The notes beneath the pieces are model-generated. The model did no database searches and was not told where the DNA came from. It worked only from the letters and a program-made list of their open reading frames with translations. This document shows, piece after piece, positions 3,592 to 37,405 of a DNA stretch of 64,000 nt; positions within the stretch are counted from its first letter, which is position 1; each line of letters starts with the position of its first letter. The DNA is taken from IMG/VR virus record IMGVR_UViG_3300041402_000314, positions 124,001 to 188,000 of that record; one strand, given 5' to 3'. This DNA comes from a virus. The translations under genes and the position numbers were made by a program.

Positions 3592-3936
3592 ATGAGTAAA
3601 TTAATAGATAAGATAGAAAGTGTATTGAATGAAGCTAAGAAAAGAAAAGCCTCTTTCGGGAAAACCAAAGATATGAGTTATGCTGTCCAGATTGATAGCC
3701 TAGATAGTAATGATTTCTATACTCAGGCATTCGGTAGACAAATTAGCGATCTGAGGAAAGCGGATGAATTTATTAAAACAGCTAAGAAAGGTTATGTTGA
3801 TGGTAAAGGCAAAGCAACACTTCCTGCCGTCAGAAAATGGGTAAAGGAAAATCAGCCTTCAGAATTCTATGCTAAATGGAAATCAGATAGTTCTTGGTAT
3901 AAAGATGATAGCATAGAAATCTTTTATAAGAAATAA
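3592..3936 (+). CDS. leader-family protein
   Basis: 114 residues; leader MSKLIDKIESVLNE|A, then a Lys/Arg-rich linker (KKRKASFGKTK) and a small domain with 'YAVQIDSLDSNDFYTQAF' and Trp/Tyr-rich C-terminus. SD GGAG eight bases before the ATG. Unknown function. Confidence 0.65.
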   Translation: MSKLIDKIESVLNEAKKRKASFGKTKDMSYAVQIDSLDSNDFYTQAFGRQISDLRKADEFIKTAKKGYVDGKGKATLPAVRKWVKENQPSEFYAKWKSDSSWYKDDSIEIFYKK

Positions 3937-3944
3937 GGAGAATC

Positions 3945-4118
3945 ATGAATTTCAAAGATTATATATTAAACGAAAAATCTAAAGAAGCTTCAGAAGTTCT
4001 ACAGCTTATGGATAAGGACGAAGACGCTGATTATGGAAAGGCTTTAAAAGCTGTTCTGAAGAAGTATCCTAAAGTTGATAAAAAGGCTTTGGAAAAAGAA
4101 TTGAATAAATATATTTAA
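3945..4118 (+). CDS. 57-residue leader-family protein
   Basis: SD GGAG and ATG at 3945. The N-terminus MNFKDYILNE|K is the short leader variant (F-x-x-Y-I-L-N-E) and is close in form to T4 internal-protein leaders. The mature ~47-residue peptide is almost all charged helix (KALKAVLKKYPKVDKKALEKEL). Too short to classify further. Confidence 0.6.
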   Translation: MNFKDYILNEKSKEASEVLQLMDKDEDADYGKALKAVLKKYPKVDKKALEKELNKYI

Positions 4119-4131
4119 GGAGATAGAACTA

Positions 4132-4359
4132 ATGGACATATTAGATAAGATAGACGCAGCACTAAACGAAGATTCAACTGAAAACGCAAAGAAAACCCTT
4201 CAAGCTATTATAGGTACTCTCAAGAAGTCTGAAGGAAAAGATAAGGATGAGATGCTAGATATGGCTAATGGTATAATGGATTACTACAAGAAAGAAAAAT
4301 CCTTTGCGCCTAAACAAGCCGAATGGATTTTCAATACCTCTAAAGCATTATTTAAGTAA
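4132..4359 (+). CDS. leader-family protein
   Basis: 75 residues; leader MDILDKIDAALNE|D. The mature part is helical and Lys-rich (TLQAIIGTLKKSEGKDKDEM, then YYKKEKSFAPKQAEWIF). Preceded by GGAG. No family recognised. Confidence 0.65.
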   Translation: MDILDKIDAALNEDSTENAKKTLQAIIGTLKKSEGKDKDEMLDMANGIMDYYKKEKSFAPKQAEWIFNTSKALFK

Positions 4360-4368
4360 GGATATAAA

Positions 4369-4581
4369 ATGGATATTATAGAAAAGATAGATGAAACATT
4401 AGAAGAAGCCACATCATCCGATGGTATAGATGTAAAGGGTTTACTGAATGATTTAAGAAAGGCCGAGAACAATATGAAACAATTAGCAAGTACGGTCAAT
4501 CATTTTAAACCCGGTAAAGTTAGAGCAGATGATTATGTCGAACCTATTAAAAATGCTGTTAAAAAATTAAAAGGTAAGTAA
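4369..4581 (+). CDS. leader-family protein
   Basis: 70 residues; leader MDIIEKIDETLEE|A. The mature ~57 residues form a likely helical hairpin (VKGLLNDLRKAENNMKQLAS ... VEPIKNAVKKLKGK). SD AAGGA precedes ATG. Unknown function. Confidence 0.65.
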   Translation: MDIIEKIDETLEEATSSDGIDVKGLLNDLRKAENNMKQLASTVNHFKPGKVRADDYVEPIKNAVKKLKGK

Positions 4582-4593
4582 AGGATTAATACT

Positions 4594-4842
4594 ATGTCAA
4601 AGACATTCATAGAATACCTCTCAGAGGCTAGATTTGACGTTATAAGCAAAGAAAAAACAAAAGATGGGCGGAAGCTTCACCATACAGTAGAAATCGCCTC
4701 TAAGACGAAAATAGACGTTGATGATGTCGCTACTAAAGTTGGTTATCCTCCAATGGCTTATGGATTGTCAAAATCCAAGGTAACTAAACTGGATAATGGA
4801 AATTTTAAATATGAATGGGATTCTGCTTCAAATGCAGGATAA
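4594..4842 (+). CDS. leader-family protein, T4-like short leader
   Basis: 82 residues; MSKTFIEYLSE|A matches the form of T4 internal-protein capsid-targeting peptides (about ten residues, aromatic, then L-x-E|A). The mature part looks like a beta-rich domain ending in YEWDSASNAG. Unknown beyond that. Confidence 0.65.
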   Translation: MSKTFIEYLSEARFDVISKEKTKDGRKLHHTVEIASKTKIDVDDVATKVGYPPMAYGLSKSKVTKLDNGNFKYEWDSASNAG

Positions 4843-5416: not shown

Positions 5417-6643
5417 ATGGCTGGTAGAGATGTTAGTAATACTAACTTAGGTAAATTAGAAGCTTTGTATGATATCGTTGATGTTTTATCTGGAACTTCG
5501 GGAGAAGGAGAACAAAAAACGGCTTTCGATGAATTATTGATAGCAGAACTTACTCCAGTTATTCAATTACAATTTCCTTATAATATAAATACGGATTTAT
5601 TATCTATAACTACTTCCGTTTCTGGTGATGTCACTCAATCAAATACTAAAGCAGTTATTGAAACTGGAGCTAGTAGTAGCAGTTCAGCATCTATACAAAG
5701 TAAGAAAGTATTGAAATATAATCCCGGTCAAGGTTCCTTAGTTAGATTTACCGCGTTATTTACTGCTGGAGTAAATGGGTCATCTCAGTTAATTGGAGTC
5801 GGAGATGATCAAGATGGATTTTTTGTAGGTTGTGATGACACTACTTTTGGTATTTTAAGAAGACAGAATGGTGTTGATACATGGACATATCAAACTAATT
5901 GGAACGGTGATAAAGCAGATAATAGTGGAACTTTACCTGTTATAGATTTCACTAAAGGTAATGTATTTCAAATTCGATATCAATGGTTAGGTTATGGTGC
6001 TATAAAATTTTATATAGAAAACCCAAGCAATGGTAAATTAATATTAGTACATACAATTCCATATGCTAATGCTTATACGATAGCATCTATTTACAATCCT
6101 ACTTTACCATTATTTGTAAAGGCAGAAAATACTACAAATGATACTAATATTAAAATAGAAACATCTTCTTTAGCTGGATTCGTTGAGGGCAAATTAGAAA
6201 CTAAATCTTCTTCATTAGTGAAAGCTAAAGGTAATTTAAAAGCTGCAATAACTACAGAAACTAATCTTATAACGATTAGAAACAAAAGTACGTATCAATC
6301 AAAAACTAACAGAGTTAGAGTGAAGCCCATATTTATTTCATTGGCGAACGAAGGAACTAAAACTGTCAAGTACAGGTACTTGTTAAATGCTACTATCGGT
6401 GGTACGCCATCATTTAATAGTATAGATGTGAATAATTCAGTTATTGAATATGATATTGCTGGAACAACAATAACTGATGAAGGAAGTGAACTTTTTACTG
6501 TAGATTTAGCAAAATCTGATTCCGACCGAATAACTTTACCATTTGATATTCCTTTGAATCCCGGAGATTCATTAACTATTACAGCGGAGTCATCTTCATC
6601 TACAGATGCAGAAGCTTCAGTTACATGGGAAGAATTATTTTAA
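5417..6643 (+). CDS. virion structural protein (jelly-roll-like)
   Basis: 408 residues, no signal or membrane segment, rich in Ser, Thr, Asn and Gly. Residues ~60-230 hold a beta-rich domain with 'QLIGVGDDQDGFFVGCDD' followed by FGILRRQNGV, a pattern I associate with surface proteins of large phages; the C-terminal half (230-408) is a second beta domain ending EASVTWEELF. The N-terminus (SNTNLGKLEALYDIVDVLSG) resembles that of the protein at 8807 (NTNLAKLDVLISRLLA), suggesting a shared attachment segment. Strong late promoter. Capsid decoration or fibre component is the likely role, by inference. Confidence 0.65.
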   Translation: MAGRDVSNTNLGKLEALYDIVDVLSGTSGEGEQKTAFDELLIAELTPVIQLQFPYNINTDLLSITTSVSGDVTQSNTKAVIETGASSSSSASIQSKKVLKYNPGQGSLVRFTALFTAGVNGSSQLIGVGDDQDGFFVGCDDTTFGILRRQNGVDTWTYQTNWNGDKADNSGTLPVIDFTKGNVFQIRYQWLGYGAIKFYIENPSNGKLILVHTIPYANAYTIASIYNPTLPLFVKAENTTNDTNIKIETSSLAGFVEGKLETKSSSLVKAKGNLKAAITTETNLITIRNKSTYQSKTNRVRVKPIFISLANEGTKTVKYRYLLNATIGGTPSFNSIDVNNSVIEYDIAGTTITDEGSELFTVDLAKSDSDRITLPFDIPLNPGDSLTITAESSSSTDAEASVTWEELF

Positions 6644-6654
6644 AGGGAACTAAC

Positions 6655-6849
6655 ATGGATTCAGATATATTGGTTGATATGAGATCAAAGAAAATATTAG
6701 GCGGTTCCGCTTTCATACATAAGATAAAAGGTTATGTGATATGGAAAGTCTTGTCGATAGATAAGGCAGGAAAGATAAAAGATAATTTTACCTTCAAAGA
6801 CGAGATATTAGCCACTGAGAAATTCGAAGATATCACGGAGATCGATTAA
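6655..6849 (+). CDS. small hypothetical protein
   Basis: 64 residues from the ATG at 6655 (AAAGGGA just upstream; an earlier in-frame start lies inside the previous gene). Sequence MDSDILVDMRSKKILGGSAF... suggests a small beta domain ending EKFEDITEID. Its stop overlaps the stop of the minus-strand endonuclease. Not recognised. Confidence 0.5.
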   Translation: MDSDILVDMRSKKILGGSAFIHKIKGYVIWKVLSIDKAGKIKDNFTFKDEILATEKFEDITEID

Positions 6850-8030
6850 TGTTTTCCAAATACTGCCTCTTTGGGTGTCCAGCCGCAACGTAATCTGGAA
6901 GCTATGACACCATACTTATTTCTGGATATTTCAGCCCATTCTTTCATGGATTTTTTATCACCATCTATAGTTAGACCTTTCTTTTTTCCATAGACTGCCT
7001 TTTCGGGAGACCAACCTATATTCATTCTCCCTCTAATTATTTCTGGGGTATTCCCAGAAAGTTCAGCCCATTCTTTTATAGTTTTAGTTTCTCCGTTGAA
7101 TGTTAAATATTTCTTAGTTTTATGTTCGGAAAATACAGCTTCCTTTTCAGACCATCCATTTCCCAATCTGGTATGTATAGTATTGAAATTAGTTCCAGAT
7201 TTATTAGACCATTCCTTTACGGTTTTAGTTACGCCATTTATTGTTAAATATTTCTTATTTTTATGTTCTGAAAATACTGCTTCTTTAGGAGACCAACCAG
7301 CTTTTAGCCTCCCTCTTATAGTATTAAAGTCTATACCAGAAAGTTCAGACCATTTTTTCACAGATTTAGTTTCACCCTCTACAGTCAGATACAATGTTAT
7401 TTTACATTCATCTCTTATTATTGTCTCGATTCGTTTGCGAATTTGTTCAGGTGATTATTTCTTACCAAATTGGGAATGTTTTTCACCTCTTTGGGAGTCA
7501 CTAATTAATTTCCTAGTTTCTTCAGAATGTGTTTTACCATACATACCATTTTTCTCACCAGATGACATTTCTGAATATCTCAGTCTTTCTTCTGGATTTT
7601 CAAAACGTCTGATTTGTGCCTTTCGTAATTTCTCTATGGTTTCTTCAGTCGGTATATACCCACAACATCCTTCACCTCCATTAGTCTTATTGAGCAAAGG
7701 CCCTAATCCCAAATCTACTCTACCTACCACTCTTATTATATATCTTTCTTTAGCAAAGGCTTCCTGTTCTGTTACATTTTCTAATATCTTGATTATTTTA
7801 GGCTCATAACCATCTTCTATTATTTCTCTAAGTAGATTTAATTTATCCGAATCAATATCTGTATTAATAGCATCTTTGGCATGTACTTCACATCTATCAT
7901 CAAGACCTTTACCTCCATAGATAGGAAGATAGTCTAGTGTTAATTTACCGCCATCATAAATGAAAGTACCTGTATGTCTTGGGTCTAATATTATATATGT
8001 ATAGAAAATAGGGTCTTCGGGATTGGTCAT
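6846..8030 (-). pseudogene. GIY-YIG homing endonuclease interrupted by one in-frame stop
   Basis: The first part (8030 to 7455) is 191 residues: GIY-YIG nuclease (TYIILD near 12-17, IYGGKG near 38-43, catalytic-type Glu in ERYIIR, NKTNGGEG) then NUMOD3-type repeats (GKTHSEETRKLI, GEKHSQFGKK). A TAA at 7457-7455 follows. Without any change of frame the sequence continues SPEQIRKRIETIIRD and then four ~45-residue repeats (6846-7394) of the form YLTINGxTKTVKEWxxxSG...GWSxxEAVF, DNA-binding modules of homing endonucleases. Restoring the stop gives one ~394-residue protein. So it is a nonsense-disrupted mobile nuclease, or two separate polypeptides if a TTG at 7394 is used. Confidence 0.8.
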
Positions 8031-8131
8031 GATATTGCTCCTTATATAAATAGATGTGAGAGGGACAGCAAGTAGATTGCTCCACTTGTTGCTAGGTAGT
8101 TCGTGCTATCTAGCTAACCTCTTATTATAAC

Positions 8132-8139
8132 TATTTATA
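8132..8139 (-). promoter_or_regulatory. late promoter for the homing endonuclease
   Basis: Reading the minus strand gives TATAAATAGTTATAATAAGAGG, the same extended late-box form as on the plus strand. It lies about 100 bases upstream of the endonuclease start at 8030; the leader can fold (CTAGATAG with CTACCTAG, one mismatch). SD AAGGAG sits just before the start. Confidence 0.6.
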
Positions 8140-8162
8140 CATCGAGATATTTTTCTGGAAAC

Positions 8163-8170
8163 TATAAATA
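8163..8170 (+). promoter_or_regulatory. T4-type late promoter
   Basis: TATAAATA followed by GTTAAAAC, 27 bases before the gp14-like gene at 8197. It is divergent from the minus-strand box at 8132-8139. Confidence 0.8.
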
Positions 8171-8196
8171 GTTAAAACAATATTAAAAGGAATATT

Positions 8197-8781
8197 ATGA
8201 GTTTTAATTTTACTAACACTCCAGACAGAGCAGTGTATGAAAATACTTTAGCTGAAAGTATCGAAATTTTCGGAATTTCGATAGAATATCTCGTGGTTGA
8301 ATATGACGAAACCAAAGAAAAACTCTATGCTGAAGACAGCAAACCACATACAACCGCTAGATATTTGATGAAAGCACAGGCGGAGTATCTGGGTTCCGAG
8401 GATTTCATGCTAACAAAATTTGGGCTACAGAGCAGTGACCAAATGGAACTCGTCATATCAAAATCAAAATTCGAAGAAATCGTTGGCGATGGTGCGGAAC
8501 CCAAGAGCGGTGATCGTGTATATATTACTTATCAAGATAGATACTATACGGTCGCGGACGCGAAGGAAGAATCCAACATTTTTCTTCAACGGAAATTTTC
8601 GTGGATGCTTATTCTTAACCCTACTGACCTCATTGGAGCCGAAGTTACGCCTAATATTGGTGTACCTGATTATGAGGACGAAGAAGATATTTTTAATGAT
8701 AATGATCTTATCGATGAATTGGATGATGATATCGTAGTAGAGAAGACAGACGATGTTAATCCTTTCGGTGATTGGGAATAG
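8197..8781 (+). CDS. 14: neck protein, T4 gp14-like
   Basis: 194 residues. Alignable by eye with T4 gp14: LAESIEIFGISIEYLVVEY near 18-36 (gp14 has VAESIQMRGVECYYVPREY), then KFGLQSSDQMELVISKSKFE, 'EPKSGDRVYITYQDRYYTVA' and KFSWMLILNPTDLIG. The C-terminus is acidic and ends NPFGDWE (gp14 ends in a similar PFDND tail). In T4, gp14 with gp13 forms the neck that closes the filled head and receives the tail. Directly upstream of gp15 and gp16 homologues, in T4 order, apart from inserted genes. Confidence 0.85.
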   Translation: MSFNFTNTPDRAVYENTLAESIEIFGISIEYLVVEYDETKEKLYAEDSKPHTTARYLMKAQAEYLGSEDFMLTKFGLQSSDQMELVISKSKFEEIVGDGAEPKSGDRVYITYQDRYYTVADAKEESNIFLQRKFSWMLILNPTDLIGAEVTPNIGVPDYEDEEDIFNDNDLIDELDDDIVVEKTDDVNPFGDWE

Positions 8782-8806
8782 GAAAGGTTAATAAAGGAGA
8801 CTAATT

Positions 8807-9376
8807 ATGGCAGATGAAACACCAAATACTAATTTAGCGAAACTGGATGTTCTTATCAGTCGTTTACTTGCTGATGAAAATTCTGGTAACTTAAGAACAA
8901 TTAGTACCGTACATGAAAAAATCCACAAAGGAGAAATCTATGTATTTGGACATTATGATACATCGGTAGCTAATAATGGAAACCTAGACATTCTATTTAA
9001 AACAGGAGCTTCTTTAAGAAGTGATATTATAGTTAATATTGCCAGTACAGGAGATGCAGAAGTACGTATTTATGAGGCTCCTACGACAAGTGGTGATGGA
9101 ACACCTTTAACACCGAGAAATAAAAATAGGTACACAACTGATACCGTTACTTTTTCTGTTTTCCATACACCAACGGTTGATGTTGTCGGAACAGAATTAA
9201 TAAATCAGTTTGTTGCTGGTGGTTCTGGTGGTATAAAAATTGGTGCTTCTACTGAAGAAAGAGATGAATGGGTTTTTAAACATGGTGTAAATTATTTGTT
9301 AAGAGCAACAAATATATCTGGCCTATCTGCTAAAATAAATGTTGTTGCCTCCGTATATGAAGCATCTAATATCTGA
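8807..9376 (+). CDS. virion surface protein, paralogue of 56180-56737
   Basis: 189 residues. It shares with the protein at 56180 the motif HEKIH[KE]G near residue 42, then NG-x-x-DIL, RNKNR/RNNNF, a Gly-rich VxGG region, and a closing EWV...YLLR...SG segment, which together define a conserved beta-sandwich. Its N-terminus (NTNLAKLDVLISRLL) resembles that of the protein at 5417. These features suggest a capsid decoration or tail surface protein; exact placement is not visible in the sequence. SD AAGGAGA. Confidence 0.6.
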   Translation: MADETPNTNLAKLDVLISRLLADENSGNLRTISTVHEKIHKGEIYVFGHYDTSVANNGNLDILFKTGASLRSDIIVNIASTGDAEVRIYEAPTTSGDGTPLTPRNKNRYTTDTVTFSVFHTPTVDVVGTELINQFVAGGSGGIKIGASTEERDEWVFKHGVNYLLRATNISGLSAKINVVASVYEASNI

Positions 9377-9384
9377 TATAAATA
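9377..9384 (+). promoter_or_regulatory. T4-type late promoter
   Basis: TATAAATA followed by GTTAAAAC, beginning right at the stop codon of the preceding gene and 26 bases before the small gene at 9410; probably also serves gp15- and gp16-like genes downstream. Confidence 0.8.
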
Positions 9385-9409
9385 GTTAAAACATGAGGAG
9401 AAAGAATAG

Positions 9410-37314: not shown

Positions 37315-37351
37315 TTTAAGGAAGGACAGTGGGTAGCTCCCATTGATGATG

Positions 37352-37405
37352 TGTTTACTCCATATCATCTTACTTCCATACATAACTTAAATAATGGAGT
37401 AAACA
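37352..37405 (+). promoter_or_regulatory. hairpin hiding a ribosome binding site
   Basis: TGTTTACTCCAT (37352-37363) pairs perfectly with ATGGAGTAAACA (37394-37405). The right arm contains the GGAG at 37396-37399 that serves the nuclease ATG at 37408, so a folded transcript would block initiation. Unlike the 58429 element, the late promoter here lies outside the hairpin, so late mRNA would also fold. Confidence 0.7.

What the first reader, a model, noticed from the sequence alone, without database searches (positions are those of the whole stretch)
6846..8030. Homing endonuclease cut by exactly one in-frame stop
The GIY-YIG/NUMOD3 part and the four-repeat DNA-binding part are in the same frame, joined by 20 codons reading SPEQIRKRIETIIRD..., and separated only by TAA at 7455-7457. 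Just before the stop the protein reads GEKHSQFGKK, just after it SPEQIRKR, so the stop replaces one residue of a NUMOD3 repeat. Either recent inactivation, or a suppressed stop, or a functional split.
Basis: seen in the sequence. Interest (0 to 1): 0.5.

Follow-up and report, generated by a model that had tools for sequence, protein, structure and literature searches.

The report
Broken homing-endonuclease gene with RNA leader
A selfish DNA-cutting gene in a large T4-like phage appears to have been switched off by one stop codon, and its start carries a folded RNA leader, apparently undescribed, that unrelated genes of the same selfish kind share.

Summary
On the minus strand, 8030-6846 is one GIY-YIG/NUMOD3/four-repeat homing-endonuclease gene, cut by one in-frame TAA (7457-7455) inside a NUMOD3 motif. 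The best reading is a recent nonsense inactivation. The downstream half is open for 202 codons, its repeats show past protein-level selection, and no start with a Shine-Dalgarno site follows the stop. No UAA-reading tRNA was found among the resolved tRNAs. Relatives have varied sense residues here. A second endonuclease gene of this phage is also cut by one stop (TGA, L139), as is L012 in another phage. A sequencing error cannot be excluded without reads.

The more interesting part lies upstream. The gene starts from a T4-type late promoter and a three-way-junction RNA leader. I found 16 distinct copies in at least five phage groups; 14 sit directly before endonuclease genes of four nuclease types. 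The helices covary strongly (19 of 23 pairs). Rfam has no match. Structured leaders on phage endonuclease genes are known (I-TevI, segB, mobE); this shared, portable junction seems new.

The parts
8132..8139 (-). T4-type late promoter box TATAAATA of the endonuclease gene
   Evidence: 27 TATAAATA in the window vs 15.8 expected; 14 of 27 lie just upstream of an ORF start (within 60 nt on +, 130 nt on -); a (C/T)TAAATA-like box precedes the leader copies
8059..8122 (-). three-way-junction RNA leader (P1-UUA-P2-AA-P3 with GCAA loop-CUGUC-P1')
   Evidence: shared with 15 other distinct copies; 19 of 23 pairs covary, 0 of 500 shuffles reach the score
8038..8043 (-). Shine-Dalgarno AAGGAG, directly after CUAUUUAUAU, which is complementary to the promoter box
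7458..8030 (-). N half, 191 aa: GIY-YIG nuclease and NUMOD3
7710..8003 (-). LEM-3-like GIY-YIG domain (PF22945), residues 10-107
7434..7526 (-). NUMOD3 match that spans the stop (residues 169-199 of the read-through)
7455..7457 (-). in-frame TAA
6849..7454 (-). C half, 202 aa, open; predicted helix then four beta-beta-alpha-alpha-alpha repeats
7263..7391 (-). repeat 1 of the DNA-binding array
7122..7250 (-). repeat 2
6981..7109 (-). repeat 3
6849..6977 (-). repeat 4
37320..37377 (-). degenerate copy of the leader without Shine-Dalgarno or endonuclease gene
   Evidence: 56.1 bits with model R2, but that model contains this copy; 31.5 bits with R1, which does not

Best explanation
This is a free-standing, late-expressed homing-endonuclease gene of a T4-like phage. 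Its ancestor made one protein: a GIY-YIG nuclease, a NUMOD3 linker and four tandem DNA-binding repeats of the kind otherwise seen on HNH homing endonucleases. A nonsense mutation inside a NUMOD3 motif now ends translation after 191 residues. The product keeps the nuclease domain and loses its DNA-aiming array, so homing is most likely lost (inferred). The break is recent, because the orphaned half is still intact. The gene is read from its own late promoter through a three-way-junction RNA leader that it shares with other endonuclease genes. The leader most likely confines or boosts translation to late transcripts: transcripts from upstream would carry the promoter box and could pair it with the complementary stretch next to the ribosome site, as for I-TevI. 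This leader mechanism is inferred, not shown.
For: NUMOD3 homology spans the stop. The C half is open for 202 codons; with 104 of 1818 single changes making a stop, absence of a second stop bounds neutral divergence since the break at about 0.087. Repeat-to-repeat dN is 0.28-0.49 against dS 0.9-2.3, and the N half against the intact paralogue L140 has dN 0.17 and dS 1.38: selection acted on both halves before the break. Three GIY-YIG paralogues of the same phage are uninterrupted. The stop column in relatives holds H, K, L, Q, N and others. The same kind of lesion occurs in L012 (TGA), where L016-L018 are 94.6% identical and L016 reads on, and in L139 of the same phage (TGA). Decay stages sit side by side in this genome: intact (L140-L142), one stop (window, L139), solo leader (L138), degenerate leader (37 kb). 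Leader.
Against: No reads and no close relative of this phage were available, so neither the base itself nor population variants were checked. No other fusion of GIY-YIG/NUMOD3 with these repeats was found, so the intact ancestor is inferred. Three of three in-frame stops seen (window, L139, L012) fall near a domain junction, which a split hypothesis would also predict. The outer pairing that would gate translation stops short of the Shine-Dalgarno itself, and in L141 the lowest-energy fold is not the three-way junction.
Confidence: 0.75

Rival explanations
1. The TAA is a sequencing or assembly error; the gene is intact in the phage.
For: The record is a single metagenome-derived virus contig; both halves look otherwise undamaged.
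Against: Many genes of the window are long and uninterrupted; a second endonuclease of the same record has its own stop, and such lesions occur in another phage.
Confidence: 0.12
2. Functional split: the 191-aa nuclease works alone, or with the C half made from an internal start.
For: Some relatives are GIY-YIG/NUMOD3 proteins of similar length with little behind NUMOD3 (L006, L007). Stops in window, L139 and L012 lie near domain junctions. Repeat arrays of this type also occur without a nuclease domain in the same frame (L087, L089).
Against: The first in-frame starts after the stop are TTG (+63) and GTG (+96), neither with a Shine-Dalgarno; NUMOD3 is cut through the middle; no relative with the two halves as separate genes was found.
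Confidence: 0.08
3. The stop is read through or suppressed so that some full-length enzyme is made.
For: The phage carries an amber-suppressor-like tRNA (anticodon CUA, L215:3929-4002 -), so recoding exists in principle.
Against: A CUA anticodon reads UAG, not UAA (textbook). None of the other resolved tRNAs reads UAA or UGA (one tRNA-like match not resolved). TAA ends 39 of 51 long ORFs, 17 of them in the same TAAT context. L139 has a different stop in a different context.
Confidence: 0.05

Closest known systems
I-TevI-type GIY-YIG/NUMOD3 homing endonucleases (phrog_314; TIGR01453)
   Same: GIY-YIG nuclease, NUMOD3, C-terminal DNA-binding part; late promoter and structured leader (PMC2988022 passages)
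   Different: DNA-binding part is a four-repeat array found on HNH enzymes; gene interrupted by a stop; the TIGR01453 score (48.2) is below its cut-off (56.05)
HNH homing endonucleases with C-terminal 'TKTIKEW..GW' repeats (phrog_3377; e.g. Staphylococcus phage SEP9, Bacillus phage 035JT004, Neobacillus L124)
   Same: same repeat unit, one to three copies
   Different: HNH nuclease instead of GIY-YIG; fewer repeats
RNA-structured leaders of I-TevI, I-TevII, I-TevIII, segB and Aeh1 mobE (PMC2988022, PMC3014915: passages read)
   Same: late promoter next to the gene, RNA structure before the start, predicted block of upstream-initiated transcripts
   Different: those are hairpins that cover the ribosome site; here a covarying three-way junction sits between promoter and ribosome site and is shared by unrelated nuclease families
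seg43 of Aeromonas phage 25 (PMC2988022, passage)
   Same: stable RNA structure upstream of, and not covering, the ribosome site of a segD-like endonuclease gene
   Different: described as a simple hairpin; model R2 finds nothing in that phage genome

Membership tests
GIY-YIG homing endonuclease | GIY-YIG domain | tested here: met
   PF22945 37.7 bits, cut-off 27; catalytic residues look present by eye (recalled motif, no call)
GIY-YIG homing endonuclease | NUMOD3 linker | tested here: met
   PF07460 47.9 bits, spans the stop in the read-through
GIY-YIG homing endonuclease | C-terminal DNA-binding module in the same polypeptide | tested here: not met
   separated by TAA; paralogues L140-L142 keep theirs
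GIY-YIG homing endonuclease | cuts and copies itself into an empty site | not testable with these tools
   no empty-site relative found
Nonsense-inactivated gene | single stop, homology continues in frame, intact relatives exist | tested here: met
Nonsense-inactivated gene | stop present in the phage DNA (reads) | not testable with these tools
   no reads held
I-TevI-type leader control | late promoter inside the 5' arm of an RNA helix | tested here: met
   UAUAAAUAG / CUAUUUAUA complementarity in the window; mean longest outer helix over 16 copies 8.1 nt vs 6.4 shuffled, 0 of 200 shuffles as high; both arms are AT-rich, so this is weak
I-TevI-type leader control | ribosome site sequestered in that helix | tested here: inconclusive
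   the helix ends next to AAGGAG and does not cover it
Known Rfam RNA family | match to a curated covariance model | tested here: not met
   no match in the window or in 7 loci at gathering score; none at E<=1 for 7950-8250

The most novel reading that the evidence does not exclude
The leader is a new family of cis-acting structured RNA that travels with, and is exchanged between, phage homing-endonuclease genes of unrelated nuclease types (GIY-YIG, T5orf172, endonuclease VII-like/HNH, DUF7487). It has an invariant junction (UAA or similar / AA / CUGUC), freely covarying helices and a GNNA-capped helix. It forms the 5' end of the late mRNA (expected from the promoter position, not mapped) and acts as a dedicated expression module for selfish genes. 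It outlives the genes it serves as solo or degenerate copies.
Probability: 0.7. Interest if true: 0.62.

Novelty: new variant of a known kind. Interest (0 to 1): 0.5.

Why it matters
The stop itself is an ordinary step in the life of a selfish gene, but this genome shows several steps at once: intact genes, genes with one stop, a leader without a gene, a worn leader. The leader matters more. If phage endonuclease genes of unrelated families carry one exchangeable RNA module, then their expression control is itself a shared mobile part. That can be tested directly with reporters, and the module gives a sequence tag for finding endonuclease genes and their scars. It also raises the question of what the conserved junction binds.

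Tried and rejected
Close relatives of this phage to read the sense codon or an empty site: none (blastn of 6001-9400 in phages; neck protein in viral contigs and phages). A GIY-YIG/NUMOD3 + repeat fusion elsewhere: none among the ORFs of 80 N-half loci, 7 C-half loci, 18 pattern loci and 7 phage loci; one genome-contig scan gave only an HNH enzyme (L124). Suppressed stop: rejected, see rivals. Internal restart: no ribosome site. Fold search of the C-half model (mean pLDDT 70.4, pTM 0.29, single sequence) gave no PDB match at E<=0.001, so the DNA-binding role rests on family matches. PHROG label 'Panton-Valentine leukocicin' for phrog_201 was taken as a mislabel of a DNA-metabolism family, a judgement from its category. 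The 23-bit R2 hit in G036 was rejected: GC-rich, no late box, no endonuclease. Antisense hits of R1 disappeared with R2 and were dropped from counts. blastn of two leaders against phages: none. Literature: six searches listed no paper on this leader; only open-licence papers are held, and the Aeh1 mobE paper was not held. Papers: PMC3014915, PMC2988022, PMC11855218 and PMC9964418 were seen as passages only; the rest as listings.

Full report
What is there. The window is 124001-188000 of a 204,149-base virus record. It is T4-like: a neck protein (8197), a tail sheath stabilizer (9565) and a baseplate wedge-like protein (46544) are encoded, and TATAAATA late-promoter boxes are enriched, 27 against 15.8 expected, 14 of them just upstream of ORF starts. 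Between two plus-strand genes lies a minus-strand reading frame, 8030-6846, with exactly one internal stop, TAA 7457-7455.

The protein. The first 191 residues are a LEM-3-like GIY-YIG nuclease domain with NUMOD3. The 202 residues after the stop hold a predicted helix and four repeats of about 43 residues. The NUMOD3 profile matches straight across the stop when an X stands there, so the two parts were one protein. The repeats are those found, one to three at a time, at the C-terminus of HNH homing endonucleases in phages of Bacillus, Staphylococcus, Klebsiella, Lactobacillus and Enterococcus. None of the ORFs matching the N half in the loci fetched up to one search carried the repeats (100 ORFs at E<=0.01, many of them duplicates). 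The fusion is therefore a domain swap seen once here. Its nearest paralogue in the same phage (L140; 69% identity over residues 2-139) has an unrelated tail with repeated WYNDGK..QPEDWVLGR units, so the same nuclease domain has been joined to different DNA-binding tails.

Why inactivation. Both halves show past protein-level selection, and the C half has gathered no second stop. Three paralogues in the genome are uninterrupted. At the stop column 51 aligned segments from relatives give H 11, K 10, L 6, Q 5, N 4 and other residues 14, with one gap, duplicates included: a variable place. The tRNA set contains a CUA amber-suppressor-like tRNA but nothing resolved that reads UAA or UGA. A second endonuclease gene in the genome (L139, Zn-finger-like N half, T5orf172 C half) is interrupted by one in-frame TGA. 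In L012, a GIY-YIG gene of another phage, TGA stands at the NUMOD3/C-module junction where L016 reads on; the two and L017, L018 are 94.6% identical over 911 bases. Homing-endonuclease genes are expected to degenerate when empty sites run out (PMC2988022, passage). A sequencing error remains possible because no reads are held.

The leader. Aligning the four GIY-YIG genes of the genome showed that similarity begins about 110 bases upstream of the start codons, at the TATAAATA box. A covariance model of those four leaders (R1) found two more strong copies in the genome: one before the broken L139 gene, one (L138) followed by only eleven codons. A weak one sits at window 37394-37290 (31.5 bits). 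A DNA pattern taken from helix P3 and its flanks alone found nine viral contigs with ten sites. All ten match R1 (47.6-81.2 bits), and all precede endonuclease-like ORFs or, in L148, a truncated one. P1 and P2 were not part of that pattern, yet they pair in all of these with different sequences.

Refined model. R2, built from 12 distinct copies, found four further distinct copies in one 248-kb record, each 24-27 bases before an endonuclease VII/HNH-type ORF. In all there are 16 distinct copies. On the MAFFT alignment of 12, 94.0% of cells pair and 19 of 23 pairs have two-sided changes, score 0.698 against 0.236 shuffled. On the model-fitted alignment (22 rows, 16 distinct) 92.2% pair, again 19 of 23 pairs, 0.628 against 0.214. 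No shuffle of 500 reached either covariation score; the count of further pair types was not exceptional (88 and 116 of 500 shuffles as high).

Context of the 16 copies. Eleven stand before uninterrupted endonuclease ORFs (L140, L141, L142, L143, L144, L147 twice, L175, L176, L177, L178). Two stand before endonucleases with one in-frame stop (window, L139). One stands before a 47-codon remnant (L148). Two have none (L138, 37 kb). Nuclease types: GIY-YIG, T5orf172, endonuclease VII/HNH-like, DUF7487 with homing-endonuclease PHROGs. The copies fall into at least five phage groups (G000; the G004 group; G002; G005; G006), grouped by shared identical copies, not by a tree.

Controls. Of the 41 other records searched whole (36 viral contigs with GIY-YIG or NUMOD3 loci or pattern hits, 5 named phages), one gave a weak hit, judged chance. 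None of T4, Aeromonas phages 25 and Aeh1, B23, P-SSM2 and S-PM2 gave any. R1 found none in 82 loci. Rfam has no match. Limits: copies outside G000 were reached through a P3 pattern, so P3 sequence conservation among them is partly by selection, and the true spread is unknown.

How the leader may work. The box places the expected late transcript start near P1 (recalled T4 spacing), so late mRNA would begin with the junction. Upstream-initiated RNA would also hold the box itself, which is complementary to the CUAUUUAUA-type stretch just before AAGGAG. In I-TevI, segB and mobE such pairing hides the ribosome site until late transcripts omit the 5' arm (PMC3014915 and PMC2988022, passages). Here the outer helix ends beside the site and does not cover it, and the inner junction is conserved beyond what a simple block needs, so it may bind something or stabilise the mRNA. 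In one copy (L141) the lowest-energy fold is a different one. These steps are inferred.

Verdict. The finding as given is real and most likely an ordinary inactivated homing endonuclease of unusual domain make-up. Its leader belongs to an RNA element that I could not find described, within the limits of an open-licence library and six searches.

Noticed in passing
L139:2323-1358 (-) = about G000:C1:82822-81857: Second leader-bearing endonuclease gene (Zn-finger-like N half, T5orf172 C half) of the same phage, also cut by exactly one in-frame stop (TGA, L139 1846-1844) in the linker.
   Followed up: partly
L138:2800-2689 (-) = G000:C1:75299-75188: Solo leader with promoter box, Shine-Dalgarno and start codon, but only 11 codons follow; no endonuclease gene left.
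   Followed up: partly
window 37378-37319 (-): Degenerate leader copy without Shine-Dalgarno, between two plus-strand genes; possible scar of a lost endonuclease gene.
   Followed up: partly
L215:3929-4002 (-) = about G000:C1:5928-6001: tRNA with anticodon CUA (ARAGORN calls it Pyl), a likely amber suppressor, in a cluster of some 30 phage tRNAs.
   Followed up: partly
window 14026-13145 (-): ORF 14026-13505 ends in TAG and the frame runs on for 119 codons into what ORF listing gives as the next gene; with a CUA tRNA in the phage this could be an amber read-through fusion or just adjacent genes.
   Followed up: no
L012 about 3910-4670 (+): GIY-YIG gene with in-frame TGA at the NUMOD3/C-module junction; L016-L018 are 94.6% identical, and L016 reads on.
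   Followed up: partly
L140:1350-2297 and L142:1227-2264, L141:1194-2024: Paralogues carry a different C-terminal repeat (YN-DG ... QPEDWVLGR type), four units in L140 and one each in the others; no clear Pfam family for it.
   Followed up: no
L147 (IMGVR_UViG_3300027896_000657): A 9-kb contig with two leaders before two unrelated endonucleases (endonuclease VII-like and DUF7487), the clearest case of the leader shared between families.
   Followed up: partly
G000:C1:88665-88781 (+): tRNA-like match of 117 bases far from the tRNA cluster, apparently with an insert near the anticodon loop; anticodon not resolved, possible intron.
   Followed up: no
window 8045-8052 (+): A plus-strand TATAAATA box lies inside the minus-strand leader, opposite the CUAUUUAUA stretch; the leader may also hold an antisense late promoter.
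   Followed up: no
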